Of a DNA stretch of 64,000 nucleotides, positions 33,209-53,733 are shown piece after piece. Below the pieces are notes generated by a model. The model searched no databases. It was not told the DNA's origin and worked only from the letters and a program-made list of their open reading frames with translations. The first letter of the stretch is position 1, and each line of letters begins with the position of its first letter. The translations under genes and the position numbers were made by a program. Source of the stretch: Olivibacter domesticus (GTDB lineage Bacteria > Bacteroidota > Bacteroidia > Sphingobacteriales > Sphingobacteriaceae); NCBI RefSeq assembly GCF_900109575.1, contig NZ_FOAF01000001.1, forward strand, positions 1,211,662 to 1,275,661, in the 5' to 3' direction.

Positions 33209-35326
33209 TTAATTCGTTCTCTCTAAAGTTACACCCTCATAAAAATAGTCCAAAATATACTTATCAAATGAATCTAAAAATGTATATTGTTTTATTTCTG
33301 CGATGTTAACTTTTTTAAATATTTCTAAGGCACCATGAATAGTTAACTGCTCATCAAAGAAATTGATAATCCCTGCATTTTGCAGCTTTTTAGAAATCAT
33401 CCTGGGTAATCCATATTCTTCCAGTTGATAGACGACGGATGGAAGAAATGCATGTGATACTTTAGAAATAAAAGAAGAAATATCAACTCCATTGTTAATT
33501 ATTTCTTTATATAAAACGTTTATGTCGCTAGCAAGTGCGGATAGATTGAAACTAGCAATTCGTTCTAGTTTAAAAAACTGATTGATATCGATGTCATATT
33601 TGTCTAACACATCTAACATTTCTGGAATAGTGTAAGTCCAATTATTTGGCAATATTTTTATGAAAGCGACGAACTTAGAGTGTTGCTCGCTGTAACGACC
33701 ATCGCCCCATTCACCTGGTCTAAGATTAATTAGTTTATACAGCAATCTATCCCAATTATTTGAGTCGTCAGAGTTTAAGTACGAAAGTCCATTCCACTCT
33801 TCTGGCTGTTCTTTCATATCTCTTGCAATACTTTTTATAAACTCTGAATCATTAGATTGCAAAATATTTTCGCGAAGAAGTCGCTCGTAAGATTCCTGGC
33901 CTATAATATCATACATTTCCTTTTTAAAAACTGCTATCTTCGAAATTTGATCAGTTGTTAGGCTGTCTTTGTAGAGATTCTCATCTATATCCCCAAGTAT
34001 AGAATCAGGAAATTCTATGTCCAATTGTGTATGATCATCAATAGGTGGCTTTTCCAGTAAAAATATTTTACCTATAAAATGTTTGAACATTCTACCTCCG
34101 CGGCCAATGATATTTTTGTATGTGAAGCTATCCAATATACTATTGCTACCGCTCTTACGGTTGCGCCAAATAATCACATTCTCTGCTGATGTATTCACGC
34201 CTTCTATTATAGAAGACGTGGATATTATTGTTTCAAGACCTCTTTCTTCCTCAAATAGTTTAACTTGTATTTGGCTAAGGGATCTATGCATCTGGCCGTT
34301 ATGTATACCCACCCCCCTGCTAATAAGACTTGTTAACGTCCAATTTGACAGATAATTTTCAGATAACCAAGTAGCAAATTCTATCAATAATAAGTTTTCC
34401 GATAGAGGGATGTTCGCGATTAAAAGCCTCGAAACCATCTCGATTTGAGGGTAGGAAGCTGCATATATTAACGATTTAGCTTTGTTTTCAAATAGAATTT
34501 TTAGTAACGCATTTTCTTTCTTCACCAGATCTTTTCCTATTTCATTGTAAAGATCTTTACGTTCAAGGTAGACTGTGTTGAAGCCCAACTTATCTTCAAA
34601 TATCATTCCTTCCGTAAATACATTACTTACTATCGAAGCTATGTTTGGGGCTAAAAAGTACTTTTGCTTGGCTTTGGCACTTAATTTAATGATAGCCTTA
34701 AGCAATGTTGGAGATCTTTCTTTATCATATTTAGAGCTAGCTTTGTAAAATTCATCTATTATAAGCATATCAATAGTGTCCAACTTATTAAAATAGTGCA
34801 TCGCCCGTTCTTGTGGAAAGATGAAAATATTTTTTTCTGCAAGAGCGACCTCAGTTGTAGTAATAATCTTGTAGCTACCAGAAAACTTTTTACACAAGCG
34901 GCGTCTTGTTTCATCTGTAAGCGCTATGGTTGGCACTATGATCATCACATTTTGAGGCTTCTTTATAGAAATAAAAGCGTCAATAACAAAGCTTTTTCCG
35001 AAACTAGTTGGGGCGCTGACCGCAATATTTTGACCCTCAATTAGCTTTTTTAAAAGATGTGATTGTTCTCTATGCAATGTAGCTTCCCGCCCCCCTATAT
35101 CTACTTTAAAGGCTTCAAGAATGAAACGCTCTTGCCAATTACTATTCTCCTCTTGAAGATAGGGGTATAAGCCTGTAACTCGAATTAAATGATTAACTAT
35201 AGGCGAATACGAGAGATTATTTGACCGATGATAATCAAGTAATTTGATTAGTTCGTTTCTAGCCTTAAGATCTTCATTGGCTGAAATATAGTCATTTATT
35301 ATATGACATGTTGCAAAAATATCCAT
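33209..35326 (-). CDS. hamB: Hachiman helicase HamB
   Basis: A 705-aa SF2 helicase. Walker A is SAPTSFGKSFV (K111), motif Ia VPTIALTDETRRRL, Walker B LIIDEFYK (D191-E192, a DEFY variant of DEAH), and motif VI lies in the NIIGRGGRMFKHFIGKIFLL region. The C-terminal 250 residues are helical. It is encoded 5 nt after a DUF1837 (HamA) gene, the defining Hachiman pair. In this system HamA is the nuclease and HamB the DNA-translocating sensor that restrains it until phage or damaged DNA is met. Confidence 0.9.
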   Translation of the reverse strand: MDIFATCHIINDYISANEDLKARNELIKLLDYHRSNNLSYSPIVNHLIRVTGLYPYLQEENSNWQERFILEAFKVDIGGREATLHREQSHLLKKLIEGQNIAVSAPTSFGKSFVIDAFISIKKPQNVMIIVPTIALTDETRRRLCKKFSGSYKIITTTEVALAEKNIFIFPQERAMHYFNKLDTIDMLIIDEFYKASSKYDKERSPTLLKAIIKLSAKAKQKYFLAPNIASIVSNVFTEGMIFEDKLGFNTVYLERKDLYNEIGKDLVKKENALLKILFENKAKSLIYAASYPQIEMVSRLLIANIPLSENLLLIEFATWLSENYLSNWTLTSLISRGVGIHNGQMHRSLSQIQVKLFEEERGLETIISTSSIIEGVNTSAENVIIWRNRKSGSNSILDSFTYKNIIGRGGRMFKHFIGKIFLLEKPPIDDHTQLDIEFPDSILGDIDENLYKDSLTTDQISKIAVFKKEMYDIIGQESYERLLRENILQSNDSEFIKSIARDMKEQPEEWNGLSYLNSDDSNNWDRLLYKLINLRPGEWGDGRYSEQHSKFVAFIKILPNNWTYTIPEMLDVLDKYDIDINQFFKLERIASFNLSALASDINVLYKEIINNGVDISSFISKVSHAFLPSVVYQLEEYGLPRMISKKLQNAGIINFFDEQLTIHGALEIFKKVNIAEIKQYTFLDSFDKYILDYFYEGVTLERTN

Positions 35327-35331
35327 AAATA

Positions 35332-36270
35332 TCAGTCATTGTCTTTATGAAACTCTACCGTCGAAACAAACTTCTCAGTGATGTATGCTTTGGTCGGCAC
35401 TGGAAATAAAATAATATGAAATGCTATCTGTTCATAAAGATGAACTTTAATTTTAAGCGTTTCAATTTGTTTTTTAAAATATGCCTCAGCCCTTGCGGCA
35501 TGATAATTAATAAGATCTTGTTTGTAGGCATCATTCATTATAGATTGTTTACTTGTGAATTCACATTGATGAAGCAATAGTATTGGAATATGCAGGCGCG
35601 GTTTTAAGATATCAATTGAAGTATTTGGTGATAATATATTTTTTATCGAGTTTCTTAAATTTTCATCTGTAATTAATGTATTCAGGTCAGAAACACCCGT
35701 TATTATACCATTTTCTTTTTTAAGTTTTTCTTTAATTAACGAATTTCCTACCGATTGAACGATTTCAGATAATCGGGTATCCTCTATACTATTATAAAAC
35801 TTGGCTTCACCAAACCAAATGGAAAATTCTCCAGCTTCGTCAACAACAATGTGTACACTGTCAGCACCTTTGGCATTGTCTTGCGTATTTTGCTTATAAT
35901 AAATCTTCGGAACTACCGGTAATGCCTTGTAATGATTCTTCATTATACCATAGAGAATGATCTCTGCCATCTCACTACCTTGACTAATTTTATCTTTTTT
36001 ATCCGTAAGGCGAAGGTTTTTAGCCGCTCTATTCAACACTGAGGAAGGGCTTCCAATCAAACTTTCCCTTTCCTTATGGGTTAATGCAGTCTCGGCTACG
36101 TTATCGAATATAAAGTTCATGAATTTAGAGTAACGCCATTTACCATCCTCAAAATCATTTATTATCGACAAAACTCTCTTTTTGTCAATTGGTTGAAGAT
36201 TCGTATCCAAGTTGACTGCCGCGAACTGGTCATCTATTAGAATTTCAAAAACTAAATCTGTACTTAACAT
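35332..36270 (-). CDS. hamA: Hachiman nuclease HamA (DUF1837)
   Basis: A 312-aa DUF1837/HamA protein. Conserved E100 in QGSEMAEIILYG, then the nuclease motif KGADSVHIVVDEAG and WFGEAKFYNS (D137, E155, K157: D...ExK). ILLLHQCEF and the HIILFPVPTK end follow. HamA is the effector that degrades DNA once released by the helicase HamB. It is preceded (48 nt) by a YbjQ-like gene and followed (5 nt) by hamB. The catalytic triad is intact, so the system looks functional. Confidence 0.9.
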   Translation of the reverse strand: MLSTDLVFEILIDDQFAAVNLDTNLQPIDKKRVLSIINDFEDGKWRYSKFMNFIFDNVAETALTHKERESLIGSPSSVLNRAAKNLRLTDKKDKISQGSEMAEIILYGIMKNHYKALPVVPKIYYKQNTQDNAKGADSVHIVVDEAGEFSIWFGEAKFYNSIEDTRLSEIVQSVGNSLIKEKLKKENGIITGVSDLNTLITDENLRNSIKNILSPNTSIDILKPRLHIPILLLHQCEFTSKQSIMNDAYKQDLINYHAARAEAYFKKQIETLKIKVHLYEQIAFHIILFPVPTKAYITEKFVSTVEFHKDND

Positions 36271-37763: not shown

Positions 37764-39038
37764 TCAGTTTCCCCGCATTACGGCTTTTGTTATATTTCTT
37801 CCCAGCCTTTTCAGCAGGCTTGCATCCTCTGTTATGATCTCAGCATCTCCCGTCATACCTATTTTAAGTTTGATTCCGGTATTTTCTTCCTTTAAGAAGA
37901 GCTGCACCCTCGATAGGTAGGTACTGTCGCGGTAAGGCACATCGGTTATCAGGAGAATCCTCCCTTCAATCTTGCCATACTCTTCATATGGATAACTGTT
38001 CATGCTTATCAATACCCGTTGTCCGCTCCTAACCTTACCCATATTGTTCTGTCGCACATGCATTTCCCCAAAATAGCTCGTGCTTTTCGGGTTAATATAA
38101 AAAATAGGTTGTCCGGCTTCTATGTACTGCTTCTCCTGTATAATACCGGAATAAGCTAGCTCCCCGTCCTGCTGGGCGATTAGCACATATTGCTGCTTCC
38201 ATTTTTCCATCTCGCTTATAATGCTGTTCAGCGCCTGTACGAAGGAAGTCTGTTCTGTTCGTATTTTATTTTCTAGTTCAGCAAGCTCTTTACTGCGGGC
38301 CGTCAGATTGGCCTGACTTGCCAGTATATTGGAGCCGATCTGCTGAAGCGGCTGCTGTTTGGATAGCAGCGCAGATTCCTGCTTCTGCATTTCCATCGGT
38401 GAAATAACTTTTTTTTCTGCCAATATGCTATATGCCTGATGTTCTTTTTGGGCTAAACGGTAATCCTTTTCGTAGAGTTCCTCCTGCTCACGTAACCTCT
38501 TCTGCTGTTGTTTTTCGTAATCCATTTCCTTTATCAGATACCTTCTCTGTTGTAGATACAACCCCCCTTTAATTGCCGCTTGGTAATTTGTATATGCATT
38601 ATAAAATGTTTGATAAGGCCCCTGAAGCTCTCCCAGATCCAGGTTATGGGGGGCGTCGGGCAAAAAGAAAGAGGAGTCCAGACCGTTCCTTAGCTGGACA
38701 AGTTTTGCCAGAAGATCTAGCACCTGGTCATGTTTACCCGAGCTTTCCATCCAGGCAAGCACTTGTCCCGACTGCACTTTCATCCTTTCTCTCACTAGAA
38801 GTTTGGACAAAGTACCCGACACTCTAGGCACAACTGCTTTTGGGGCGTTTATAGCATTCACTTTGATCCCGGCGCGGACAATATCGGGATATTGGATAAA
38901 AGCCGACATGGTGACGATTGCCAGCAAAATGGAGAGAACTAACGATATGCCCCATTTCAGCAGCCAGGAAGGGGGTTTGGATATGATGTCCTGTAAATCT
39001 TCGGCATGGATTTCTTCCGATCGTTTATTTCTTTTCAT
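37764..39038 (-). CDS. HlyD-family membrane fusion protein of peptide exporter
   Basis: A periplasmic adaptor of 424 aa from the ATG at 39038 (a TTG 21 nt upstream is also possible). One transmembrane helix (about 28-47, WGISLVLSILLAIVTMSAF) is followed by a barrel-sandwich/lipoyl half (INAPKAVVPRVSGTLSKLLV), a long coiled coil (about 135-265) and a beta-barrel (GKVRSGQRVLISMNSYP, LKIGMTGDAEII). It links the C39 ABC exporter, whose gene it overlaps or abuts, to the outer-membrane exit. It is the last gene of the RiPP cluster. No outer-membrane TolC gene is present nearby. Confidence 0.9.
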   Translation of the reverse strand: MKRNKRSEEIHAEDLQDIISKPPSWLLKWGISLVLSILLAIVTMSAFIQYPDIVRAGIKVNAINAPKAVVPRVSGTLSKLLVRERMKVQSGQVLAWMESSGKHDQVLDLLAKLVQLRNGLDSSFFLPDAPHNLDLGELQGPYQTFYNAYTNYQAAIKGGLYLQQRRYLIKEMDYEKQQQKRLREQEELYEKDYRLAQKEHQAYSILAEKKVISPMEMQKQESALLSKQQPLQQIGSNILASQANLTARSKELAELENKIRTEQTSFVQALNSIISEMEKWKQQYVLIAQQDGELAYSGIIQEKQYIEAGQPIFYINPKSTSYFGEMHVRQNNMGKVRSGQRVLISMNSYPYEEYGKIEGRILLITDVPYRDSTYLSRVQLFLKEENTGIKLKIGMTGDAEIITEDASLLKRLGRNITKAVMRGN

Positions 39039-39048
39039 CTCAGTGTCT

Positions 39049-41241
39049 TTAATTGCCAAGTTCTAACTGGTTCTTCACTAAACGGTAGTATTCTCCCTTC
39101 TGCTTTACCAGATCCGCATGGGTACCCTGTTCTACTATGGCTCCTTTGTCAAGTACAACAATATTATCTGCATGGCTCACCGTACTTAATCGATGGGCCA
39201 CAACAACAACTGTTCTGCCAATAAAAAACTCTTTCAGGTTATCGATGATAACCCGTTCATTCCTTGCATCCAGTGCATTGGTAGCTTCATCGAAAAGGAT
39301 GAACTGTGGGTCTTTGTATACAGCACGGGCGATCAGCAAACGCTGTCGCTGTCCCTGGCTGATTCCCTTGCCCGCTGTCCCGATCCTGGTTTTCAATCCA
39401 AATGGCTGCTCCTCTATAAATCCCTCCAGATTGGCCATTCGGATGGCATAGCGGACGCGCTCTATATCAGGAAACTCTTCCCCAACTGCTATATTGTTCT
39501 CAATGGTATCTGCGAAAATAAAGCCATCCTGCATCACCATCCCGCAGCCGGCACGCCATACCCGATGCGAAACTTGGTCCAGTTTTGTAGAACCGAGAAA
39601 TATCTCCCCCTTTTCGGCCTTATAAAAGCGCATGATAAGCTTTAATATGGTGGTTTTGCCGCTGCCGCTCATGCCTACCAAGGCTGTCGTTTTGCCTTCG
39701 GGGATATCCAAGTTTATATCGCGCAAGACCGGCTCGTTTCCCGCACCTAAATAACGGAACGTGATATTCCTGAGGTACAGCGAACGGTCCTTCGGTATTT
39801 CCTGTATCCAGTCCCGGTCGAGAGGTTCCTCGTCTTCCTGTGTAAAAATTTCGTTGATCCGTTCCAGGCTGATCTTGGCATCCTGGTATTGCTGGATAAA
39901 TGTAAGCAACTGCTCTATCGGGCTATTGACCATACCGACCACGTACTGTACGGCCATCATCCCGCCCAACGTAAGATCGCCATCGATAACCGCCTTGGCG
40001 CTTATAAAAGTGATGAGAATATTCTTCAGCTGGTTTATGGCCATGGCACCGGCCTGTTGGTATTGTGACAACGCCAAACTCGCTACTTTAAATTTAAAGA
40101 GCCTTGCCTGGATGGTCTCCCAGATCCAGCGCTTCTGTTTTTCACTGTTGTTAAGCTTGATTTCCTGCATACTCTGGATCAGTTCCACCGTTACCGTTTG
40201 ATTGTCTGAACTGATTCCGAAACGCTTCTGATCCAGCACCCGTCGTCGTTTCAGAAACAGTAGTATCCACCCCGTATAAAGAATGGTCGCACCGGCAAAG
40301 ATCAAAAAGATCGTGCCGTTGTAATAAGCCAGCACAAAACCAAAAACAAACAGGTTGACAAAGGAAAACAGGGTATTCAACGAAGAGCCGGTGAGAAAGC
40401 TTTCAATCCGCTGTTGATCGGCCATTCGCTGCATAATATCTCCGTGGGTTTTCAGCTCGAAAAAACTCAGCGGCAGTTTCATGAGTTTGATCAGCATGTC
40501 GGTAAGAACGGCAATGTTAATTCTGACACTGATGTGCAGAAGAATCCATGAACGGATGAACGAAACACCTGTTTGCCCTACAAAAAGCATCAACTGAGCT
40601 ATCAGTACGAGATAAACAAAATGGATGTCCTCAGTGTTAATGCCGATATCCACTACGGACTGTGTAAGAAAAGGAGTGATGAGCTGGAGAATGGTGCCCA
40701 CCAACAGTCCGAAAAAGAGCTGAACGATCAGTTGTCTATAACGGTAAAAGTACTGTAGCATCGATGTCCACCGGAGACCTTCGACGGGAAGGTTCTCATC
40801 GGGATCATCTTCATAGAAAGAGGGTGTTGGTGCCAATAAAAGAGATATGCCGCTGTGGAGCTCTTTATGGGCATACCAGTCGTCCGTAAACTCTTTTGCC
40901 GTCAGTTCCCGGAGTCCCTGTGCCGGGTCGGCAATATAATAGTTTCCCTTTTTAACTCTGTATAGCACCACGAAATGGTTCTGCCTCCAGTGCAGGATAC
41001 AGGGCAGGTCTATCTCCCGGAGCTGTTCCAGCGTCAGGCGCACCCCCTGCGTCCTGAACCCCAGTTTTTCCGCCGCCTCGCTGATACCCAACAGATTCAC
41101 ACCATGTTTATGGGTCTGTGTCAATTGTCGGATATAGTGAATGGAAATATTACGTTTATAGTATTTACATATCATCCGCAAACAGGTTGCACCGCAATCC
41201 ATTACATCCTGTTGGCGAAAAAAGGGAAACTTGTTTAACAT
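39049..41241 (-). CDS. Peptidase-C39 ABC exporter (PCAT) for double-glycine peptides
   Basis: A 730-aa exporter. The N-terminal C39 protease (1-140) has catalytic Cys16 in QQDVMDCGATCLRM and the His of QNHFVVLY, plus YIADPAQG. Six transmembrane helices span about 160-440. The ABC domain has Walker A LVGMSGSGKTT, a divergent signature GISQGQRQRLL and Walker B FILFDEATNALD. It cleaves the leader after Gly-Gly and exports the core peptide. The obvious substrate is the 64-aa precursor at 48891. It forms a unit with the HlyD gene. Confidence 0.93.
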   Translation of the reverse strand: MLNKFPFFRQQDVMDCGATCLRMICKYYKRNISIHYIRQLTQTHKHGVNLLGISEAAEKLGFRTQGVRLTLEQLREIDLPCILHWRQNHFVVLYRVKKGNYYIADPAQGLRELTAKEFTDDWYAHKELHSGISLLLAPTPSFYEDDPDENLPVEGLRWTSMLQYFYRYRQLIVQLFFGLLVGTILQLITPFLTQSVVDIGINTEDIHFVYLVLIAQLMLFVGQTGVSFIRSWILLHISVRINIAVLTDMLIKLMKLPLSFFELKTHGDIMQRMADQQRIESFLTGSSLNTLFSFVNLFVFGFVLAYYNGTIFLIFAGATILYTGWILLFLKRRRVLDQKRFGISSDNQTVTVELIQSMQEIKLNNSEKQKRWIWETIQARLFKFKVASLALSQYQQAGAMAINQLKNILITFISAKAVIDGDLTLGGMMAVQYVVGMVNSPIEQLLTFIQQYQDAKISLERINEIFTQEDEEPLDRDWIQEIPKDRSLYLRNITFRYLGAGNEPVLRDINLDIPEGKTTALVGMSGSGKTTILKLIMRFYKAEKGEIFLGSTKLDQVSHRVWRAGCGMVMQDGFIFADTIENNIAVGEEFPDIERVRYAIRMANLEGFIEEQPFGLKTRIGTAGKGISQGQRQRLLIARAVYKDPQFILFDEATNALDARNERVIIDNLKEFFIGRTVVVVAHRLSTVSHADNIVVLDKGAIVEQGTHADLVKQKGEYYRLVKNQLELGN

Positions 41242-41298
41242 AAAGATGATTTCGAACTAGATTAGAAACATTAAATATAAAATCGATAATTTTATATC

Positions 41299-41964
41299 TC
41301 ATAGATTACTTTGATACTTTCGATTTATATGACGCATTTTTTCCAACCGTTTTATACTTTGCTGCGACAATTCTGAAAGTCGGCTCTCCTTCTCAATATC
41401 CCGCTTATGTCCTTCGCTAAAATCTCGATAAGTTGAGATGAAGGGAAAAATTAACATCTTATTTCCAGTCAATAAACTTAGTTTCTGAAAAAATTCATCG
41501 CCATCTTCAAAAGGTTCGTCCAAAATCAGTTTGAATAAACTTCTGTATATTATAAAAAATTGGCTGTCCTGAAATGAATCGATCCAGCACCTTTCTTCAT
41601 CGACAATTACTGCGTGCCCAAATTTACTAACTCCACCTAGAAGGAGTTTGGTACCTTGCGAGGCTGCTGCCACAATATTATTAAACAATTTATTTTTTGA
41701 ATACGAATCTGTAAAACGATGATGTTCGCCACATATAGCAATAAAATCGTCATTTCTAGCTTCAGCCTTTTCTAAAATTCTCATAAAAGCACGCCAAGAT
41801 TCTTTCTGAAAATCTAAGTCACCGTTATACTCATCATCAGCTTGTAGATCAAACTCGTTCCTATTTTCAAATTCTTGCCTTAATAAAAATATATGTTCAG
41901 GATTTCCTGATTTTTGCAATACGTATATGGGTATTGTGATTCCTGCATACAAATCTTCTTTCAT
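41299..41964 (-). CDS. GT25-like protein, catalytic-acid motif altered
   Basis: A 221-aa protein related to its neighbour at 41967. Shared blocks include the late FIAICGEHHRFTDSYSKNK versus MIIICEDDHKFTDMYNEAC, LLLGGVSKFGHAVIVDEERCWIDSF versus LLLGGVSWFEDIVQVDEGIFWISRF, and FPFISTYRDF versus HPFISVQKEF. The EDD motif that binds the nucleotide sugar and metal in GT25 enzymes is Glu-His-His here. It may be an inactive partner, or have altered metal use. It lies 2 nt from that neighbour and 57 nt before the exporter, clearly in the RiPP operon. Confidence 0.7.
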   Translation of the reverse strand: MKEDLYAGITIPIYVLQKSGNPEHIFLLRQEFENRNEFDLQADDEYNGDLDFQKESWRAFMRILEKAEARNDDFIAICGEHHRFTDSYSKNKLFNNIVAAASQGTKLLLGGVSKFGHAVIVDEERCWIDSFQDSQFFIIYRSLFKLILDEPFEDGDEFFQKLSLLTGNKMLIFPFISTYRDFSEGHKRDIEKESRLSELSQQSIKRLEKMRHINRKYQSNL

Positions 41965-41966
41965 TC

Positions 41967-42650
41967 TTACATGTTTTTGTAAAAGGAACTTACATCGCCA
42001 AGCTGCTTGATCTTTTTGTCGGATACATCAAACAACATATTTACCCAACCTTGTTCACCGTTCTTCCTTGTTATATCTGAATAACCAAACTCCTTTTGTA
42101 CCGAAATAAACGGATGAATCACGAATGCTTGCTCTGTAAATAGAGAAAGTTTAATATCCGCGTTATCATAAATATCAAAATCAATATCAAGTATTTTCTC
42201 ATAAAATTTTTTAAAAATCACTGTAAATTGCAAGCCATTAAACCTACTTATCCAAAAAATACCCTCATCGACCTGCACAATATCTTCAAACCAACTCACG
42301 CCGCCCAATAGTAAGTCCGCGTCGATATTTTTCGCCTTCTCAACAGCAGACAAAAAGCAAGCCTCATTGTACATGTCTGTGAACTTGTGATCGTCTTCGC
42401 AAATGATAATCATCTCCAGTTCTTGATTTAACGCTTGCAACACAATTCCTTTCACCGTGATCCATAGTCCCAGTGCGCCTATAGAATGTTTTACCGCCTC
42501 GATGACGGTAAGGTTAAAAATATTTTTATCTTGAAACTCTTTAAGTATATGATCTTTCCGATCATCACGACTTTTTAAATTAATAATAAATGTGTCGAAC
42601 ATATCATTACTTTCTATTAATCTTAACGTATGATTTTCTAATAGGCTCAA
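41967..42650 (-). CDS. GT25-like glycosyltransferase
   Basis: A 227-aa protein of the GT25 (LPS-type) glycosyltransferase pattern. It has TFIINLKSRDDRKDHI (INL..R.DR), EAVKHSIGALGLWITVKGIV, and the DxD-equivalent IIICEDDHKF. Such enzymes transfer a hexose from a nucleotide sugar. In a cluster with a double-glycine peptide it may glycosylate the peptide, as in glycocins, although glycocins use unrelated S-glycosyltransferases. It overlaps the next upstream gene by 4 nt. Function on the peptide is inferred from linkage. Confidence 0.75.
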   Translation of the reverse strand: MSLLENHTLRLIESNDMFDTFIINLKSRDDRKDHILKEFQDKNIFNLTVIEAVKHSIGALGLWITVKGIVLQALNQELEMIIICEDDHKFTDMYNEACFLSAVEKAKNIDADLLLGGVSWFEDIVQVDEGIFWISRFNGLQFTVIFKKFYEKILDIDFDIYDNADIKLSLFTEQAFVIHPFISVQKEFGYSDITRKNGEQGWVNMLFDVSDKKIKQLGDVSSFYKNM

Positions 42651-43396
42651 AGACCTTTTTCGCCAAGGCTATTCTTCGCATTGAAAAGTAATGAACCATC
42701 AGTTAGATTCTCAAGTGGATTCTTTTTATTCCACTGCCACATATTATTCCACAAATGAACTGAATACGTTTCAGGACCTATGTTAAAATCGTTTCTCGAC
42801 GATACCTGATCAAAAGTATTCCAAGGATTAGGGCAAAATGTTTCAGGAGCTACTATAAACTCTTCTAAATAATTATCGACTATTTCTTCTTTTAAATAAC
42901 CAGCACCTATTTCAGTCCACTTAATATCAGATATCGCCTGACTTTTCAATTTTTCGTCTATACGTGCCAAAATATTACCGCCAATCTTACTTTTTTTTGG
43001 CATTTTCATAACGGCATTACAAATTCTGATTTCAAGGCTTTCTTTCAAATAAAAGCTTTCTGTTGCAAAAACGTAACTATCCTCAGAATCGAATTTCTTT
43101 ATTAATAAGACGTCAGAGTCGACCCACCACCCGCCTACATCATAAAGCAATTTGATCCTAAACCAGTCACTAAAAGTGGCATAAGAATTTGCGTTATCCT
43201 TGAAAACAAATGAATAATCTAGAATTTCGTTCGCGTCTTTCACAACCACATCCTCTGGCAAATTTTCTATGTTATTGTAGGTATACATTTGAAACTCTAC
43301 ACCAGCAGCGAGAAAGGACTTGATACAGAGCACCTGCATATCATCAATCACTGGGCTAATCCATAAACTCTTAACAATATTATTTTCGTTCATCAT
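42647..43396 (-). CDS. Sugar-transferring glycosyltransferase (DXD family)
   Basis: A 249-aa glycosyltransferase of the Gly_transf_sug/capsular-polysaccharide-synthesis type. It has KSLWISPVIDDMQVLCIKSF, FSDWFRIKLLYDVGGWWVDSDVLL (GG.WVDSD, with the DXD metal-binding residues), KIGGNILARIDEKL, EIGAGYL and the terminal PLEN segment. It overlaps the GT25-like gene by 4 nt (ATGA). It is the first of three consecutive glycosyltransferase-like genes in the RiPP cluster. Confidence 0.85.
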   Translation of the reverse strand: MMNENNIVKSLWISPVIDDMQVLCIKSFLAAGVEFQMYTYNNIENLPEDVVVKDANEILDYSFVFKDNANSYATFSDWFRIKLLYDVGGWWVDSDVLLIKKFDSEDSYVFATESFYLKESLEIRICNAVMKMPKKSKIGGNILARIDEKLKSQAISDIKWTEIGAGYLKEEIVDNYLEEFIVAPETFCPNPWNTFDQVSSRNDFNIGPETYSVHLWNNMWQWNKKNPLENLTDGSLLFNAKNSLGEKGL

Positions 43397-43487
43397 ATAA
43401 AATTTGTTATTTATTTAAAATCATCGGTTGTTTCAGGAAACATGTCTCTTGTTGCCGATAAATACTAACTTCTAGAAAGAAATCTCA

Positions 43488-45068
43488 TTATAACATGTAT
43501 TTTACATCAGCAATTTGATATGGTTGCTCTAACTTGTAGCCGTTTATTAAAATTGTTGGAGTATATAGGACGTCCGCCGCCTTACACCAAGCTTTATGTA
43601 AATCCGACACTTTATCCAGGTTCGGTTCTAAAACCACGGGGTATTTCTCGCGTAGAGAACCATAGTCTTTGAGCTTATTGCTATACCAATCATTTAAGGC
43701 TTCTCTTAAAACATCTTTATTACTGAGCCTATTCAAAGCCAGAAAATGTTTCGCCACCTCTGTTCCAGTGTTATTTGCTTCTTCTTTAGTAGCGAATATC
43801 ACCCTTAACTGAATATCATTTCTTTCGGAAATCCAATCTTCCAGTTGTCGATGAGCACTTGCACAAGGACCGCAAAATGGGTTGCTGACCATAGTTATAA
43901 TGGTATCCGCCACTGGATTACCTAATGTAACTGCTTCTAGATCGTTAGTTACAAGCTTGTTTTGGCTTTTTAAAAATGCGTTAAAAATAGCATAATTGTT
44001 CTTAAAGAGTTTTAACTGCTTATCTAACACTGTCTTCTTAATTGAAGATTGAAAAAATGGCTTAAGGAAATACCAAAATGCCAGTGGAAATAAAAAACTC
44101 AACACTATTTTCAAGTATGTCAAAAAACCGAAATTGATTGTGATAGCTTGATAAGGAAAATTAAAAAACAGAAACTCCGACCACAAAATCACAAGAACCG
44201 AGCAACATAAAAAGCACCACTGCTTTAAATTGATCTGATATATTAGTGAGTAAAACGTAAATGGCAAACAGGCTATATTAAGCACTCTCAGAAAATTCAA
44301 TGACTCTGGAGCAATCACCATGCAAAAAAAAGAGCCCGAAAAATAGAACCATCCAACTTCAGCCCAGCTTAACCAGCTGAAAACTTTTGACGAAGGAGAA
44401 CTTAAAATACTATTGCAGCTGCTTTCCTTATTAATAGAGCATATTTGTCTAACTAATTTGTTATTCTTGTTGACGCTGTAAATCAGCAGTAATGAAGTTA
44501 CGACAATCCCCAATGCTTTACTTATTAGAACACCGAGGAAAGATAAATGGAGAATATTTGGAATAATAGATATGCAAACCAGTAAAAACAAAACGCTTAT
44601 CAACACTGGAAAACTTAATTTTTTTATCAAAGCTTCAATCGTCGAATTCAGATATTCTCGCTCTCCGCTTGTTTTATCTTTTTCCGCATAAACAATGACT
44701 CCAGACCACAAGTTTAAAAAATGATCCAACGGCATTGTACACTTTCTATTTTTCTCGTCATAATACGACAACTTATCATTCTCAACGCTTTGCACCAATA
44801 TAATTCTAGCCTCATCTCCTTCTAAATGTGCCAAAAAAGGGTAATACAACTCTTCAAAATTGACATCAGTCTTTTGTAACTTATAGATCTCGTGAGGAAT
44901 TTTCCATTTCGTTAAACAATCGCTGATAGTCAAAAGACTGGGATGCTTTGGATGATTAGTTAACTCTTTCTCAATTGTGGTGGTACTGACTGGTATCTTA
45001 AGCCGTTTAATAAGGCTAACCAGCACGCCAATTAAATTATCATCCGAAACATTAAAAGAAGTGTTCAT
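43488..45068 (-). CDS. Fused C39-like / VKOR / DsbA-type disulfide-forming protein
   Basis: A 526-aa membrane protein. Residues 1-130 resemble a peptidase C39 domain but lack the catalytic Cys and the HFVVL His (DEARIILV in its place); such domains can hold leaders without cutting. Residues 155-335 form a VKOR-type four-helix bundle with C285-x-x-C288 (QWCFLCC) and loop cysteines C210/C218. Residues 350-526 form a thioredoxin/DsbA domain with C399-G-P-C402. It would oxidise thiols in the periplasm, so it is the probable maker of the precursor's disulfides. 280 nt separate it from the barrel gene upstream; the gap is AT-rich with no gene. Confidence 0.85.
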   Translation of the reverse strand: MNTSFNVSDDNLIGVLVSLIKRLKIPVSTTTIEKELTNHPKHPSLLTISDCLTKWKIPHEIYKLQKTDVNFEELYYPFLAHLEGDEARIILVQSVENDKLSYYDEKNRKCTMPLDHFLNLWSGVIVYAEKDKTSGEREYLNSTIEALIKKLSFPVLISVLFLLVCISIIPNILHLSFLGVLISKALGIVVTSLLLIYSVNKNNKLVRQICSINKESSCNSILSSPSSKVFSWLSWAEVGWFYFSGSFFCMVIAPESLNFLRVLNIACLPFTFYSLIYQINLKQWCFLCCSVLVILWSEFLFFNFPYQAITINFGFLTYLKIVLSFLFPLAFWYFLKPFFQSSIKKTVLDKQLKLFKNNYAIFNAFLKSQNKLVTNDLEAVTLGNPVADTIITMVSNPFCGPCASAHRQLEDWISERNDIQLRVIFATKEEANNTGTEVAKHFLALNRLSNKDVLREALNDWYSNKLKDYGSLREKYPVVLEPNLDKVSDLHKAWCKAADVLYTPTILINGYKLEQPYQIADVKYML

Positions 45069-45347
45069 AATCGACTATGAGATTTAAGTTATTATTTATT
45101 AGGCGCAATAGTTTGTTATCTCTATATTAATTTCGTCAAGATTTCAGGCAGCTAATGCATAACCTATAAACATAATAGCGTTTTCCGACAGCAAAAATGA
45201 ATGGAATACTACCAAGAATGCAGGCATTGGTAGTTGTTCATTATATTTTCGAGAAGTCAAAACATAAAGCTATCGCTCAAAACAGGACAATAAACTAATC
45301 GGACTTAGACTTACGTCCAAAACAAATATTGTTATCTATGTATGTTA

Positions 45348-48005
45348 TCAAAATTTGAAACGGCTGGATATTAAAAACTGCCTTGGCCGCAAATTAAAGT
45401 AGCTTTCGACTACCGCATAGTCAGCATTGAATCGCTGAATATATTCGTTATTGTTGAGTATATTTATTCCGCTGATTTCTATATCCATTTTCGCTTTCTC
45501 TAAAACCCATCTGTACATTAGGTCTATGAAAATCTGATTTTTCTGACCTGATGCATTGGTAATATAATAGGAGTTATTCCAGGTTATGCTATGATTTTTT
45601 ACAGGATAAAGAGTAAAATTCATATCCTGCCTAATAGTTGTTACGCGATACCGACTACCATCGGCTAGTCTATTTGAAAAAGTACCCCAATTACCCTTAT
45701 AGTGTAAAGACAAAAGCTCGTAGCTGTTATTGTTAAGATCTATGCCCAATCCATAATTCGCATTTTTCTGCTGACCAAACTGTTCATTCAACAGATAATC
45801 TGACTCACCAAAGGCCAAAGTTCCATTAATTTTCATTATCGTGTTTATATCTGAAAATAATTTGCTTGCATTTCCAGACAAACCGTGCGACCAATTTCGA
45901 CTATTCCGATTTAGAAGGCTTAACGTCCTCAGTCCATTACTATCTATCGTGTTCTGAAAAATAAAGTTGTTCTTATTTTGATTATAATGATAGGTCAGAT
46001 TCGCAAATATACCTTTCATTACATCAGCATATTTGTAGTATATAGAGTTATTCCAACTGTTCGTTCTGCGCAAATGAAAAAGATAACGCTGGATATCTCT
46101 ATAAGTGGTGACTATATAGGCGTTGTAAAGCGAGGTCAGATCACCAAACTGAGTCTTATAAGAACTGCTGTACGTAAACTCAGTTTTCTCACCTACACTT
46201 AACCGCGCAGTCCCCCTTGGATTGAACGTACCACGAGTTTCACCGTCTAAGACAGCACTTTCTAGTTGTCGCCCGTTGAATATATGCAGCACATAAGGTG
46301 TTTGTAGTGTCAATTTCCAGCGTTTCCGCTCGAATTGCATAAAGGGGTCTAATGAAATTTGAAAATGATCAGTGCTTTGGTCGTTAACAAAGTCATCTCT
46401 GCGCTCACTTTGTTTCCCATCTAGCTGTATATGGCTTCCCAGGTGATCGCGCTGGTAATCAACGCCGATGCGCGGTGTGATTAAAAAGGCGCCTATTTTC
46501 CGCGAAAAACTAAGCGAATTTTCGGTATTAAATTGCTTAAGTGAAACATCCTGCCGTAAAGCATCGTAGGGTTCGTCATTGTTCAGGATATTAGCAAATT
46601 GTCCAGGCCGGACAATCAGCCGTTGCGGCGTTTCTCCATATGTTACTGAAGAGTTAAAGGAAACTAATTGCTTAGCAATGAATTTAGATATAGACAGCTT
46701 ATTGGCAATTCCAAAATCCCGGAATACCTTATTCTGCTGTATTTGATCTGCGTCATTAAAAAGCAATCTACCATCATCATCCTCCCATCGTCGCTGAAAC
46801 TGAAGATCATTTTTTAGAAAAATTGTTTTTTCATTCTTTTCCAACACCATCCCCAAACGTAGATTATTAATGTCGTATCGATTATTGATGCTCTCGGAAA
46901 TTGATACTTCCTGACCAGGTGTAAAGATCTGCGTAAAAGTATATCCTTCCCTTTTTTGCATATCATCATAGTATGAAATATTCGCCTTAATCTGAAGATC
47001 ATCTTTCAGTTTCACTAAAATATTAGAACTACCAAGGAAAATACGGTTGTCCATCCATTTTCTTTCTTCGAATTCTGGGACAGCAATATTCTGCAATTTC
47101 ATAAAAGATTCTCCAGGAGTAATGACTGCTCCTAATGAGTTAATAACATTTCCTCCATCAAGGTAATAACTGTGCAACTGCTTTGACACATCGTTACCGG
47201 TATTATTAGATTGAACGGATTGAACACTTTGAAATGTTTTATTAAAAGTCATAGGTGTTAAATTAACATCCCACAACGCGGGTTTATATCCAATTCCAAC
47301 TTTACCGCTTCCGGTAGTTGTAAACTTTTTTAGCTCTATATTTAAAGATGCACGATCGGAAAAAACCAGTGAGTCCAGAATCTTTATCGGTTGATCATTC
47401 TCAACAATTTGTATTTTTTTCACCGCATCCGCCGGAAGGCTATTGTTGATCATACCATACCGTCCTTCCATCAAATCAAGATTGTTGACCATATATTTTT
47501 GTATCGGCCTTCCTTGATACAAAATGCGATCTCCCTCCATCTCTATTCCCGGAAGCTTTTGGATGACGTCTGCAATAACTCTATCCTGCTTGGACACGAA
47601 GGATTCGATCTGAAAATTTAACGTATCCTGTTTTTTATAAATTGGCGGAGGTCCTATCTCTACCTCTTTTAACACCTGCGATTTCGACGACAAACGGAAT
47701 TTGTATTCTGATGTTTTGTTGCTTAACATGGTATCTATTCTGCCGTAACCGAGGTGCGATAGTGTTAATAAAATGCTATCAGTTTTGGCCTGTATCTGCA
47801 GTCGAAAACGACCATCTGTTCCGCTTCTGACATATCCCATGATTGCTGCGGCGTTTTTCGCTTTATAAGTGATGCTCACATCTGGAATTTCATTACCCAA
47901 AGAATCGGTTATCTGGGCCGAAATGATAGTTTGAGCAAACAGTGGGGTAAACGGTAGAAAAACGCAAACGCAGAGAAGAAAAGAACAACGTGATACCCTG
48001 ATCAT
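45348..48005 (-). CDS. TonB-dependent-receptor-like outer-membrane barrel
   Basis: An 885-aa outer-membrane protein. Signal peptide at 1-24. Carboxypeptidase-regulatory-like domain at 25-110. A plug-like part follows with VIADVIQKLPGIEMEGDRILYQGRPIQKYMVN. Then a large barrel ends YFNLRPRQFLISSRFKF. Its stop-start overlap with the upstream GLPGLI gene is 4 nt. GLPGLI plus barrel pairs frequently accompany peptide-natural-product genes in Bacteroidota. Possible roles are export or re-uptake of the peptide, or self-protection; none is shown by sequence. Confidence 0.85.
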   Translation of the reverse strand: MIRVSRCSFLLCVCVFLPFTPLFAQTIISAQITDSLGNEIPDVSITYKAKNAAAIMGYVRSGTDGRFRLQIQAKTDSILLTLSHLGYGRIDTMLSNKTSEYKFRLSSKSQVLKEVEIGPPPIYKKQDTLNFQIESFVSKQDRVIADVIQKLPGIEMEGDRILYQGRPIQKYMVNNLDLMEGRYGMINNSLPADAVKKIQIVENDQPIKILDSLVFSDRASLNIELKKFTTTGSGKVGIGYKPALWDVNLTPMTFNKTFQSVQSVQSNNTGNDVSKQLHSYYLDGGNVINSLGAVITPGESFMKLQNIAVPEFEERKWMDNRIFLGSSNILVKLKDDLQIKANISYYDDMQKREGYTFTQIFTPGQEVSISESINNRYDINNLRLGMVLEKNEKTIFLKNDLQFQRRWEDDDGRLLFNDADQIQQNKVFRDFGIANKLSISKFIAKQLVSFNSSVTYGETPQRLIVRPGQFANILNNDEPYDALRQDVSLKQFNTENSLSFSRKIGAFLITPRIGVDYQRDHLGSHIQLDGKQSERRDDFVNDQSTDHFQISLDPFMQFERKRWKLTLQTPYVLHIFNGRQLESAVLDGETRGTFNPRGTARLSVGEKTEFTYSSSYKTQFGDLTSLYNAYIVTTYRDIQRYLFHLRRTNSWNNSIYYKYADVMKGIFANLTYHYNQNKNNFIFQNTIDSNGLRTLSLLNRNSRNWSHGLSGNASKLFSDINTIMKINGTLAFGESDYLLNEQFGQQKNANYGLGIDLNNNSYELLSLHYKGNWGTFSNRLADGSRYRVTTIRQDMNFTLYPVKNHSITWNNSYYITNASGQKNQIFIDLMYRWVLEKAKMDIEISGINILNNNEYIQRFNADYAVVESYFNLRPRQFLISSRFKF

Positions 48006-48832
48006 TTGACGACCGCCTCATAAAGTTCAATCCAGTTGTTATCTTTATCTGCCCTTTCTTTATCTTTCTTATAAGAAAGACCTCTTGATCTCTCATCCTT
48101 AAACGAAATGAACCCCGACGCTTCCTCTATTTTCGTTCTGTTCAACACGTAATTTCTTTTTGATTTAAAACACTCCTTCTTACTGATAAATCTCGGTGGA
48201 TCGACCTTGTTAAACGCTATAGAGACGGATCTTTTTATCTCTTTCAAAGCAGTTAACTCAAATATCCAGTGATTTCTTGAATCGGCTATTTTTACAATTA
48301 GTCCCGGAAGTCCGCAGAACTTATATGGTCCTTCATCGAGCGGAATATCCTGAGCAAACCACGCTATCCATTCCCTGCCTCCGTACACCATTTTAGCCTT
48401 TTGGCATAACAAACCAGCTATTGACGCAGTGTCATCGCTTATATGCCAATCAAATTTTCGCGGTTCACTGTAAAACGCTTTTTCTTTCGGATTAACTTTA
48501 AATTCATCCTGAGTAATAATCGTGTCACCTATTTTGTAAATGTAATAGCGGATTTGTGTAAGATTAGAGGCTAAAAGTCCTAGATTATTGTTTCCCTTAC
48601 TACCTTCATTTATTATCGAATCTGTTAGCGCCTTTTTCTTAGCCCTAAAGACTGACTCGCCGGAATTAACTAAGAGTTCCATCTCCTCTTCTTTGATTTG
48701 ATTGTTGGTGCTGTCCGGCAAATAAGACATATGATAATCCGCTTGGATGGAATAATTAACCGATCGACCAGCTTGATTTAAACGATCAACAAAAATGGTC
48801 AAAAAAGCACAAATGTATAGAATTTTAGGCAT
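48002..48832 (-). CDS. GLPGLI family protein
   Basis: A 276-aa exported protein of the GLPGLI family: signal segment at 1-20, the diagnostic KFCGLPGLIVKI, and a preceding WFAQDIPLDEGPYKF. Periplasmic or surface located; the biochemical role of the family is unknown, but it commonly pairs with a TonB-dependent-type barrel. It lies 58 nt after the precursor peptide gene and overlaps the barrel gene by 4 nt. Confidence 0.92.
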   Translation of the reverse strand: MPKILYICAFLTIFVDRLNQAGRSVNYSIQADYHMSYLPDSTNNQIKEEEMELLVNSGESVFRAKKKALTDSIINEGSKGNNNLGLLASNLTQIRYYIYKIGDTIITQDEFKVNPKEKAFYSEPRKFDWHISDDTASIAGLLCQKAKMVYGGREWIAWFAQDIPLDEGPYKFCGLPGLIVKIADSRNHWIFELTALKEIKRSVSIAFNKVDPPRFISKKECFKSKRNYVLNRTKIEEASGFISFKDERSRGLSYKKDKERADKDNNWIELYEAVVK

Positions 48833-48890
48833 GCATAAAGTTTATAAGTTAGAGGCTGATGAATTACCAGCCTCAAATTAGTAATTCGAA

Positions 48891-49085
48891 CTAAGAACAC
48901 AAATTGAAACACGCTATACCGCACTGTTCTCCTGTTACTTCTGAACAGTCTAGCGTATACTCTCGTCCATCTTCACATTTACACGGAACGGCGCTGCCAC
49001 TACCCGAACCACCTAAAACTTGTTTCAATTGTTCACGAGATAAAACTTCTCCCTTGTTTTGAAAATTAAAATTTAGCTTTCTCAT
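48891..49085 (-). CDS. RiPP precursor peptide with double-glycine leader
   Basis: A 64-aa precursor. Leader residues 1-26 (MRKLNFNFQNKGEVLSREQL, then KQVLGG) have the LSxEQLKxVxGG pattern of Bacteroidota bacteriocin-type leaders cut by C39 proteases after Gly26. The 38-aa core (27-64) starts SGSGSAVP and has six Cys at 35, 37, 47, 55, 59 and 63, enough for three disulfides; Ser and Thr are available for glycosylation. It is first in the cluster, followed by GLPGLI, barrel, VKOR/DsbA, glycosyltransferases and the C39 exporter. The product's activity is unknown; an antibacterial peptide is the leading guess. Confidence 0.88.
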   Translation of the reverse strand: MRKLNFNFQNKGEVLSREQLKQVLGGSGSGSAVPCKCEDGREYTLDCSEVTGEQCGIACFNLCS

Positions 49086-51200: not shown

Positions 51201-51764
51201 CTAGATTACGCTGCTTCTTTCAGGATTAAGATAGTTAAATTGTTTCTGTTCGAATTTATTTTCTAACGCTTCTATTCCGTGATCTTTTTTAAAGATAGCC
51301 TCTTTCTCTGTTACAGGGATCAGCCAGTAGAATCCTACAGATTTGCCTTCGCCCAGTTTAAGATTTTCTACGTTTGGCCCGTCTAAATAAGGCAATGATA
51401 TCAATCCGTAGGTGCACTTAGAATCCTTTTTCCAGGATCTGCCAAAATTGGCTGTATGACCCAAATCCAGCTTTTGAGCAGTATTATGATAATGGGCAAC
51501 GATTGTTAAAAGTTCCACTAAACCTTCATCTCGATCTTCGGAGAATAAGTGTAATTCAACTGGATGTAAATCGGACAAAGCTGACATGCCGCATGTTGCA
51601 TATGTCCACATGTTACGGGTCTCGGTTAGTTCAAATTCCAGTATATGGAAATTTTTATCCAGATCGTGAACAGGGCCTTTGTTCCATCTGTTTTCTGAAA
51701 AAGGGTTACCCCAATTGGAAACGTAATGCGCTATTACCTTCTCATAATATTTATTTCTTTTCAT
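51201..51764 (-). CDS. SUFU (suppressor of fused)-domain protein
   Basis: A 187-aa protein with the bacterial SUFU pattern: HYVSNWGNPFSENRWNKGP, FHILEFELTETRNMWTYATCGMSALSD, PVELHLFSED, LLTIVAHYHNTAQKL and the final YWLIPVTEKEAIF. In bacteria, SUFU proteins are a recurrent immunity family in polymorphic-toxin loci. No toxin gene lies next to it here. It sits in a minus-strand run with DUF6984 and a lipoprotein. Confidence 0.87.
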   Translation of the reverse strand: MKRNKYYEKVIAHYVSNWGNPFSENRWNKGPVHDLDKNFHILEFELTETRNMWTYATCGMSALSDLHPVELHLFSEDRDEGLVELLTIVAHYHNTAQKLDLGHTANFGRSWKKDSKCTYGLISLPYLDGPNVENLKLGEGKSVGFYWLIPVTEKEAIFKKDHGIEALENKFEQKQFNYLNPERSSVI

Positions 51765-51823
51765 CCTTCGTATTTGTTCCGGATCTCATCTTGTGATTAC
51801 TATTGTTCGATCTTAAAGTTTCT

Positions 51824-52156
51824 TCAACGATCTGGAAGCTCATTTAATTCACTGAAATCAGCCTTCCATACATCAAGTTCAAACAACTGTCCTTCTTCAT
51901 CAACGTTTAAGGACGCTATCACATCGACACCATCTTTATCTACAAATTGGTGCTCTGAAACTCGCGCGACGAACTTTCTATTTTCATTATTCTCTTCATC
52001 AACAAATAAATACAAGCTGCCCATGCCACCGTCATCCATTGGAGAAACTTTTAAACTTTGTTTCCATTTTTCAGGAAATGTCATTTTAGAGCCAACTATC
52101 AATAACTCTAACAACTTTAATTCCCGCTCTGTCGGTTTCCTTCTAATTGGCTCCAT
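51824..52156 (-). CDS. DUF6984-like protein (immunity-type)
   Basis: A 110-aa protein starting MEPIRRKPTERELKLLELL, with VSPMDDGGMGSLYLFVDEE and DKDGVDVIASLNVDEEGQLF. This matches the DUF6984 pattern, a small domain found mostly in Bacteroidota immunity-like contexts. The ATG at 52156 was chosen over 52201 because it follows AGGAAAG and begins with the conserved RRKPT segment. It is adjacent to the SUFU gene. Confidence 0.7.
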   Translation of the reverse strand: MEPIRRKPTERELKLLELLIVGSKMTFPEKWKQSLKVSPMDDGGMGSLYLFVDEENNENRKFVARVSEHQFVDKDGVDVIASLNVDEEGQLFELDVWKADFSELNELPDR

Positions 52157-52204
52157 GTGCTTTCCTGTAAACGTAATAAATAGTTCGGAATGAAAGTACA
52201 TTAT

Positions 52205-52474
52205 CTACTCCCCCTTATTGCCAAGTTTGCGTTCAATGTCTTCCAATTTACCCGCAATATAACCCAGTAACCTGTTGGTTTCGACTTGATTCTTCAAAGC
52301 TGTATCAACCTTCCAGTACCATAACATAACTGATCGAAGAAGTAAAAGAAGTCCGATCGTGATAGCTAGTACGATCAATACACTTATAATCTCTCTACCA
52401 CCACCACCTCCTCCCATTTGTGCAAAAGAAATAAATGGTGAAATAACACCAAGAAAAGTTAGTTTAGTTTTCAT
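52205..52474 (-). CDS. Small membrane protein heading the immunity-like run
   Basis: An 89-aa protein: signal peptide (1-18, ending SFAQ), a run of six glycines (21-26), one transmembrane helix (28-48) and a charged helical tail (52-89). It is first gene of the 49.5-52.5 kb run. Its leader duplicates that of the YbjQ-Hachiman operon. Similar proteins exist in Sphingobacteriaceae, but I know no function. Confidence 0.65.
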   Translation of the reverse strand: MKTKLTFLGVISPFISFAQMGGGGGGREIISVLIVLAITIGLLLLLRSVMLWYWKVDTALKNQVETNRLLGYIAGKLEDIERKLGNKGE

Positions 52475-52494
52475 TTGTTTTAATTTAATGTATT

Positions 52495-52689
52495 GGTTAT
52501 CCTAAAATGGATTAGACTGGTTTAGGCTCTGGTAATGATTTAACTGTTGATTTTGTTTTTTTTGACTGACCGCCACTCGAAATCGCCAGTTACCGAAAGG
52601 CTTCCCTCCGACCGTATTTTAATCAGTCTTTTATTTGATTCTTTTGGTTTAGTTTAAATGTTTTTTTTGACAGCACTAATGTAATTAAG
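52495..52689 (-). repeat. Second copy of the 37.4-kb leader, with a palindromic insert
   Basis: Bases 52495-52558 and 52646-52689 match 37363-37470, with an extra segment of about 85 bp between them (about 52559-52645). The extra segment begins near GACTGACC and carries AATCAGTC towards its far end, so GACTGA/TCAGTC are inverted, and its interior is GC-richer than the flanks. This looks like a small palindromic insertion into an older leader. The rest of 52475-52803 has no gene. Confidence 0.6.
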
Positions 52690-52803
52690 AGTTTTATTAT
52701 TTACAAGTAAATATGAGAAATTGTGGGAAGAGAAAAATATGTCGGGAGTCAAGATTTTGCATTATTACTAATAATTTTAGTAATTTAGCTGAAATAAAAA
52801 TAC

Positions 52804-53073
52804 ATGGAAAAGCCATATAAAATCAGGAAAATGTCGTTCATCTGCAAGAATAGACACATAATAGAGCATAACGTACACATTACCAATGCATACCAATATA
52901 GAGATATTGCTGACACAGTGTGCAAAGAGAATCAATCTAGGGGCAATTATATATGGGAACAGGATAAACCGACTCCTAAATATACGGTTGAAGACTTTTA
53001 TATGGTGCATGCAAGTCTATTCAATGAGATATTAGAACCCTTTTGCATGGAAGTGGAACCGCCAAAACGGTGA
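52804..53073 (+). CDS. Hypothetical protein
   Basis: An 89-aa soluble protein. Basic N-terminus (MEKPYKIRKMSFICKNR), then a Tyr/Asp-rich middle (NAYQYRDIADTVCKEN, IWEQDKPTPKYTVEDFYM), ending CMEVEPPKR. Composition and codon use look like a real gene, but no family is recognised. It is the only plus-strand gene between the immunity-like run and the Mug-like gene, and shares no operon. Confidence 0.45.
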   Translation: MEKPYKIRKMSFICKNRHIIEHNVHITNAYQYRDIADTVCKENQSRGNYIWEQDKPTPKYTVEDFYMVHASLFNEILEPFCMEVEPPKR

Positions 53074-53153
53074 GTGTAATGGTGGCTGACACCTGGGCGT
53101 GATCTTTCATTGAGGCCTTACAGCACGATAGCAGACAAGATGAAAACAGAACT

Positions 53154-53654: not shown

Positions 53655-53733
53655 TTTAAAGAGTTAATTTAAGTTCTTACCAAACTTAGATAAATTTCCT
53701 TTTTTTCACAAGTGTTTATTTTTGGTGTTCAAG

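What the first reader, a model, noticed from the sequence alone, without database searches (positions are those of the whole stretch)
37764..49085. Candidate disulfide-bonded, possibly glycosylated peptide natural-product cluster
A double-glycine precursor with a six-Cys 38-aa core, a C39-peptidase exporter, an HlyD adaptor, a membrane thiol oxidase (VKOR plus DsbA) and three glycosyltransferase-like genes occur together with GLPGLI and an outer-membrane barrel. No lanthionine, radical-SAM or cyclodehydratase enzyme is present, so maturation should rest on disulfides and sugars. Glycocins combine these features in Firmicutes with a different transferase; a Bacteroidota version with GT25-type enzymes would be new to my knowledge.
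Basis: partly seen in the sequence, partly recalled or inferred. Interest (0 to 1): 0.85.

Follow-up and report, generated by a model that had tools for sequence, protein, structure and literature searches.

The report
Predicted sugar-tailed, disulfide-bonded secreted peptide cluster
This gene cluster most likely makes a small secreted peptide locked by three disulfide bonds whose glycine-serine tail is decorated with sugars by a pair of enzymes related to the human collagen sugar-adding enzyme; the same pairing of tail and enzyme recurs in more than a dozen genera of Bacteroidota and seems not to have been described.

Summary
In detail: nine same-strand genes (49085 to 37764, minus) with a double-glycine precursor (38-aa core, six Cys), GLPGLI, putative barrel, VKOR-DsbA oxidase, GT32-like transferase, two GT25-family genes, C39 ABC exporter and HlyD. 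The interpretation gains comparative support. The GT25 subfamily recurs in 76 loci; of 69 with adequate flanks, all but one have an exporter, VKOR or precursor nearby. Precursors beside GT25 carry Gly-Ser motifs between leader and first Cys in 79 of 82 cases, against 15 of 60 leader-matched precursors without GT25; after the first Cys the densities are equal. The link holds within genera (0 of 20,000 permutations). GT25 copies form an ancient pair: both intact in 31 of 64, one in 33, neither in none. The modelled fold is closest to collagen galactosyltransferase. Best explanation: a cytoplasmic GT25 enzyme plus partner O-glycosylates Ser of the Gly-Ser tail, followed by C39 cleavage and export and VKOR-driven disulfides. 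Glycosylation itself is inferred. By enzyme family and Cys spacing it is not a glycocin; it is a new variant of glycosylated RiPP.

The parts
49008..49085 (-). Double-glycine leader of the precursor (26 aa, MRKLNFNFQNKGEVLSREQLKQVLGG)
   Evidence: (TIGR04149, 24.3 bits; cut-off 25); leader model A3 finds it at E 1e-12, though it is one of the rows of that model
48984..49007 (-). Gly-Ser tail of the core (SGSGSAVP), the proposed O-glycosylation segment
   Evidence: sequence; Gly-Ser tail tied to GT25 in relatives
48891..48983 (-). Six-Cys part of the core (CKCEDGREYTLDCSEVTGEQCGIACFNLCS) and stop codon
48002..48832 (-). GLPGLI family protein; recurs near GG-leader precursors with or without GT25, so not specific
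   Evidence: TIGR01200 E 9e-41; controls
45348..48005 (-). 885-aa putative outer-membrane barrel protein; accessory
   Evidence: weak PF13620 hit; similar GLPGLI/barrel pairs in control loci L157, L158, L195
43488..45068 (-). C39-like domain (no evident catalytic Cys) + VKOR + thioredoxin/DsbA thiol oxidase
   Evidence: VKOR CxxC at 285-288 and thioredoxin CGPC at 399-402
42647..43396 (-). GT32-like glycosyltransferase (Gly_transf_sug/Caps_synth); accessory, in a minority of relatives
41967..42650 (-). GT25a: GT25-family glycosyltransferase, first (N-clade) copy, acidic motif CEDDH intact
   Evidence: PF01755 E 3e-7
41299..41964 (-). GT25b: second (C-clade) copy, motif changed to CGEHH; probable non-catalytic partner
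39049..41241 (-). C39 peptidase-containing ABC exporter (cleaves leader, exports peptide)
37764..39059 (-). HlyD-family periplasmic adaptor

Best explanation
The cluster makes a secreted, disulfide-rich glycopeptide. In the cytoplasm the GT25a enzyme, held with its degenerate partner GT25b, transfers a sugar from a nucleotide donor to Ser residues of the Gly-Ser tail at the start of the core (SGSGSAVP); the GT32-like enzyme may extend or add to the glycan. The C39 ABC exporter with its HlyD adaptor then removes the leader after Gly-Gly and exports the core, and the VKOR-DsbA protein drives three disulfides outside the cytoplasm. The same two-module logic (GT25 for the Gly-Ser segment, VKOR for the Cys) explains the relatives. 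Shown: genes, conservation, tail correlation, paired GT25 with at least one intact site, predicted fold. Inferred: sugar transfer, which Ser, sugar identity, physical contact of the two GT25 copies in the window, order of steps, disulfide pairing, biological role (probably an antagonistic or signalling peptide).
For: Gly-Ser in the tail: 79 of 82 precursors beside GT25 against 15 of 60 leader-matched precursors without it (Fisher 2e-20); tail density 17.8 against 2.8 per 100 aa, but 1.5 against 1.6 after the first Cys. Within-genus permutation 0 of 20,000. In a control drawn by VKOR mostly from another family (one contig matches Dyadobacter crusticola), 8 of 29 GT25-minus tails have Gly-Ser against 28 of 31 beside GT25 by the same detector; the one GT25-plus precursor found there has SGSGSGSGS. 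Similar disulfide cores occur with Gly-Ser tails when GT25 is present and without when it is absent (L214/L216/L221 against L173/L160). Long Cys-free precursors rich in Gly-Ser (L027, L050, L055, L078) lie in GT25 loci without VKOR. Accessory glycan genes cluster with GT25: GT14 13/69 against 0/50 controls, GT10 9/69 against 0/50, UDP-galactopyranose mutase 6/69 against 0/50. All 64 GT25 pairs keep at least one EDD motif. Model of GT25a, pLDDT 92, best PDB match human COLGALT1, a protein O-galactosyltransferase.
Against: No mass, NMR or enzyme data. A Gly-Ser stretch is also the commonest flexible linker. Three precursors in GT25 loci lack the motif near the leader, and a quarter of the controls have one. 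GT25 was the search key for most positive loci, so its own frequency is not informative. Characterised bacterial GT25 enzymes act on lipooligosaccharide (my knowledge).
Confidence: 0.74

Rival explanations
1. The peptide is an unglycosylated disulfide peptide; the Gly-Ser tail is a flexible spacer and the GT25/GT32 genes belong to a lipopolysaccharide or capsule pathway that happens to be co-located with it.
For: Gly-Ser stretches are ordinary linkers; classical bacterial GT25 enzymes build LPS; some neighbours (GT11, GT14, LicD) are typical of surface glycans.
Against: Gly-Ser tails depend on GT25 presence, within genera and among loci that share the same kind of exporter and VKOR; the controls keep Cys-rich cores without such tails; the GT25 subfamily is almost never found away from peptide exporters or precursors.
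Confidence: 0.12
2. The GT25 pair modifies the peptide, but elsewhere (for example a Ser/Thr inside the Cys loops), and the tail is a recognition element for the transferase rather than the acceptor.
For: Correlation cannot tell acceptor from docking site; a few GT25 precursors have the motif away from the leader (L020).
Against: Long Cys-free precursors repeat the motif through the whole core, which suits an acceptor better than one docking site.
Confidence: 0.1
3. It is a true glycocin of the SunS/GccA type.
For: Same overall plan: double-glycine leader, C39 exporter, thiol oxidase, glycosyltransferase, Cys-rich core.
Against: No GT2-type transferase in the cluster; Cys spacing CX1CX9CX7CX3CX3C lacks the paired CX6C segments of glycocin F and sublancin (my knowledge).
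Confidence: 0.02
4. The GT25 proteins bind the Gly-Ser tail as non-enzymatic chaperones or immunity proteins.
For: One copy is degenerate in 33 of 64 pairs.
Against: At least one intact EDD motif in all 64 pairs, fewer double losses than chance (hypergeometric p 0.007).
Confidence: 0.02

Closest known systems
Glycocins (sublancin, glycocin F, thermoglycocin)
   Same: Leader plus Cys-rich core, C39 PCAT exporter, oxidative folding, glycosyltransferase next to the precursor (PMC12457901)
   Different: Here the transferase is GT25 in an enzyme/partner pair, not the SunS/GccA type; Gly-Ser tail as likely acceptor; different Cys spacing; Bacteroidota host; fused C39-like/VKOR/DsbA oxidase
COLGALT1 (collagen hydroxylysine galactosyltransferase, GT25)
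   Same: GT25 fold, protein acceptor, two transferase-like domains in one chain
   Different: About 15-18% identity over the aligned model, different acceptor residue, relative arrangement of the two domains differs (rmsd above 20 A over both domains)
Bacteroidales RiPP clusters with C39 exporters, rSAM, LanC or GlyS-like genes (PMC10352776)
   Same: C39 exporters, membrane fusion proteins, some glycosyltransferases of unstated family
   Different: That survey's text does not mention vitamin K reductase or disulfides, and the passages read describe no GT25 pair or Gly-Ser acceptor
TIGR04149 GG-leader precursors of Bacteroidota
   Same: Leader type
   Different: Family named for radical-SAM neighbours; none here, and the score is just under the cut-off

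Membership tests
Glycocin | Double-glycine-type leader and C39 PCAT exporter | tested here: met
Glycocin | SunS/GccA-type (GT2) peptide glycosyltransferase | tested here: not met
   Pfam scan finds GT25 and GT32-like domains only
Glycocin | Two nested disulfides from paired CX6C segments | tested here: not met
   spacing CX1CX9CX7CX3CX3C; the pairing itself is not testable here
Glycocin | Sugar on Ser, Thr or Cys of the core | not testable with these tools
   needs mass spectrometry
GT25 glycosyltransferase family | Glyco_transf_25 domain | tested here: met
   GT25a PF01755 30.8 bits, cut-off 24
GT25 glycosyltransferase family | GT-A fold with acidic metal/donor motif | tested here: met
   model and fold search; CEDDH in GT25a; lost in GT25b
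TIGR04149 rSAM-modified RiPP | Curated model score | tested here: not met
   24.3 against 25
TIGR04149 rSAM-modified RiPP | Radical-SAM maturase in the cluster | tested here: not met
   none in the nine cluster proteins or ten flanking ones
Lanthipeptide | LanB/LanM and LanC enzymes | tested here: not met
   none among the cluster proteins

The most novel reading that the evidence does not exclude
Bacteroidota use a modular tail code for secreted double-glycine peptides: the segment between leader and first Cys is a glycan attachment tag whose sequence matches the resident transferase (Gly-Ser with GT25 enzyme/pseudoenzyme pairs, Thr-rich with a GT7-like enzyme next to a LanC-like protein), built into variable oligosaccharides by accessory GT14/GT10/GT11/GT32, UDP-galactofuranose, phosphocholine-type and sulfate genes. 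This would be a phylum-wide class of glycosylated RiPPs, with peptide O-glycosylation by bacterial GT25.
Probability: 0.4. Interest if true: 0.9.

Novelty: new variant of a known kind. Interest (0 to 1): 0.74.

Why it matters
If true, a glycosyltransferase family known in bacteria for lipooligosaccharide and in animals for collagen would be a dedicated peptide-modifying enzyme across Bacteroidota, including oral and gut species (Tannerella forsythia, Hoylesella, Phocaeicola). It gives a predicted acceptor motif, a testable enzyme/pseudoenzyme pair, and about 80 precursor sequences for peptide natural-product discovery in a phylum with few characterised RiPPs. The link became visible only by comparing tails with and without the enzyme.

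Tried and rejected
A single-sequence scan of genome contigs with GT25a found nothing; the alignment A2 was needed. A count of GT32 in control loci (8 of 50) was an artefact: most matches were LanC-like proteins that resemble a LanC-GT32 fusion; corrected with a GT32-only model (one control, L191). Sigma-70 and terminator scans were no better than shuffles. Literature searches for GT25 or glycosylation in Bacteroidota RiPPs found no prior description in the open-access library; subscription papers are not covered. Considered and rejected: glycocin membership, lanthipeptide, rSAM RiPP, plain polysaccharide cluster.

Full report
What is there. The nine genes run on the minus strand from 49085 to 37764: precursor, GLPGLI, 885-aa putative barrel, VKOR-DsbA oxidase, GT32-like transferase, GT25a, GT25b, C39 ABC exporter and HlyD; GLPGLI/barrel, GT32-like/GT25a and exporter/HlyD overlap by a few bases. 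Domain scans confirm the assignments. The precursor core is SGSGSAVPCKCEDGREYTLDCSEVTGEQCGIACFNLCS, six Cys. The exporter keeps the catalytic DCGATC motif. The oxidase has VKOR and thioredoxin parts with their CxxC motifs and an N-terminal C39-like domain without an evident catalytic Cys, which may bind leaders (inference). GT25b is a GT25 relative (30% identity to GT25a) with the acidic motif lost. The genome holds one such precursor by similarity search.

Conservation. An alignment search of one genome per species returned 76 loci in Flavobacterium, Pedobacter, Mucilaginibacter, Chitinophaga, Sphingobacterium, Niastella, Niabella, Chryseobacterium, Tannerella, Hoylesella, Phocaeicola, Proteiniphilum, Dyadobacter and others; one weak outlier, L089, is outside the phylum. 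Of 69 loci with adequate flanks, 52 have the C39 ABC exporter, 45 HlyD and 42 VKOR; six have none of these, and five of those six still have a double-glycine precursor or close variant. GLPGLI and the barrel also occur near precursors without GT25, so they are not part of the conserved core.

The tail. Precursors beside GT25 carry Gly-Ser motifs directly after the leader: 79 of 82 against 15 of 60 leader-matched precursors from loci without GT25. The density before the first Cys is 17.8 against 2.8 per 100 residues; after the first Cys it is 1.5 against 1.6, an internal control. The relation holds when tested within genera (22 of 23 family-level GT25 precursors; 0 of 20,000 permutations reach it). 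Similar cores exist with and without the tail according to GT25. A second control, drawn by VKOR mostly from another family, gives 8 of 29 for GT25-minus loci against 28 of 31. Caveats: related sequences are not independent, and the leader model was built from GT25-associated leaders; the within-genus test and the VKOR-drawn control address these in part.

Two modules. All 34 GT25 loci with VKOR and a found precursor have Cys-rich cores. Four loci without VKOR have long Cys-free precursors with 8 to 12 Gly-Ser motifs spread through the core; five others without VKOR in reach still have Cys-rich cores. So VKOR goes with Cys and GT25 with Gly-Ser. Accessory genes near GT25 fit a variable glycan: GT14, GT10, GT11, GT32-like, UDP-galactopyranose mutase, LicD, a mannosyltransferase-like family and one sulfotransferase. 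By the same census, 28 of 69 loci lack any listed accessory, so the GT25 pair can presumably act alone there (inference).

The pair. GT25 occurs as adjacent genes or one tandem protein in almost every locus outside Bacteroidales. In a tree the first and second copies separate completely (64 against 64; support for that exact split is low, but a clade with 96% separation has 0.998). The EDD motif is intact in both copies in 31 pairs, in the first only in 23, in the second only in 10, in neither in 0; the lack of double loss is unlikely by chance (p 0.007). In the window the first copy is intact and the second is not. This fits an enzyme with a retained partner. Models of GT25a (pLDDT 92) and of a tandem relative (pLDDT 89, pTM 0.85) match human COLGALT1 best.

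Mechanism and status. Most likely: cytoplasmic sugar transfer to tail Ser, optional extension by the GT32-like enzyme, C39 cleavage and export, disulfide formation by VKOR-DsbA. Genes, conservation, correlation and predicted fold are shown; chemistry, sugar, site and activity are inferred. A second pattern, Thr-rich tails with a GT7-like and mostly also a LanC-like gene in loci without GT25 (76% against 19%), was found after the fact and needs an independent test.

Known or new. Glycocins work in a similar way but use another transferase family and Cys pattern, so this is not a member. A survey of Bacteroidales RiPPs mentions glycosyltransferases and GlyS-like genes; its text does not mention vitamin K reductase or disulfides, and the passages read name no GT25 (PMC10352776). 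Eight searches of the open library found no description of this system. I rate it a new variant of a known kind.

Noticed in passing
window 33209-36270 (-): HamA-domain protein (35332-36270) next to a DEAD-box helicase (33209-35326): a likely Hachiman anti-phage system directly downstream of the cluster.
   Followed up: partly
window 51201-55355 (-): SUFU-domain protein (51201-51764) and a HipA toxin-like gene (54039-55355) upstream, suggesting a defence/competition island.
   Followed up: no
L152 9863-12507, L156, L161, L164, L169, L173 and others: GT25-free loci with a Glyco_transf_7C-like protein, mostly beside a LanC-like protein, have Thr-rich tails in their precursors (13 of 17 against 8 of 43). 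Found post hoc.
   Followed up: partly
L058 7087-7734, L062 6747-7403: Bacteroidales GT4-GT25 fusion-type loci encode larger double-glycine proteins with Gly-Ser-rich linkers before a CHAP-like amidase domain, starting GGGDGS; GT25 may also serve larger secreted effectors.
   Followed up: partly
L087 10611-11882 and eight relatives: A fusion of a GT25-like domain with a LicD phosphotransferase domain (L087) has relatives in eight other loci.
   Followed up: no
L154, L165 (one genome, G172): Solitary Gly-Ser-tailed precursors beside small helix-turn-helix genes, without exporter or GT25 nearby; possibly matured in trans.
   Followed up: no
L013 7451-8053: A sulfotransferase-family gene between GT25 and the exporter, a possible extra glycan decoration.
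   Followed up: no
L056 5577-5846: Hoylesella timonensis small ORF with a C-terminal Gly-Ser-rich segment in the same locus as a GT25 pair.
   Followed up: no
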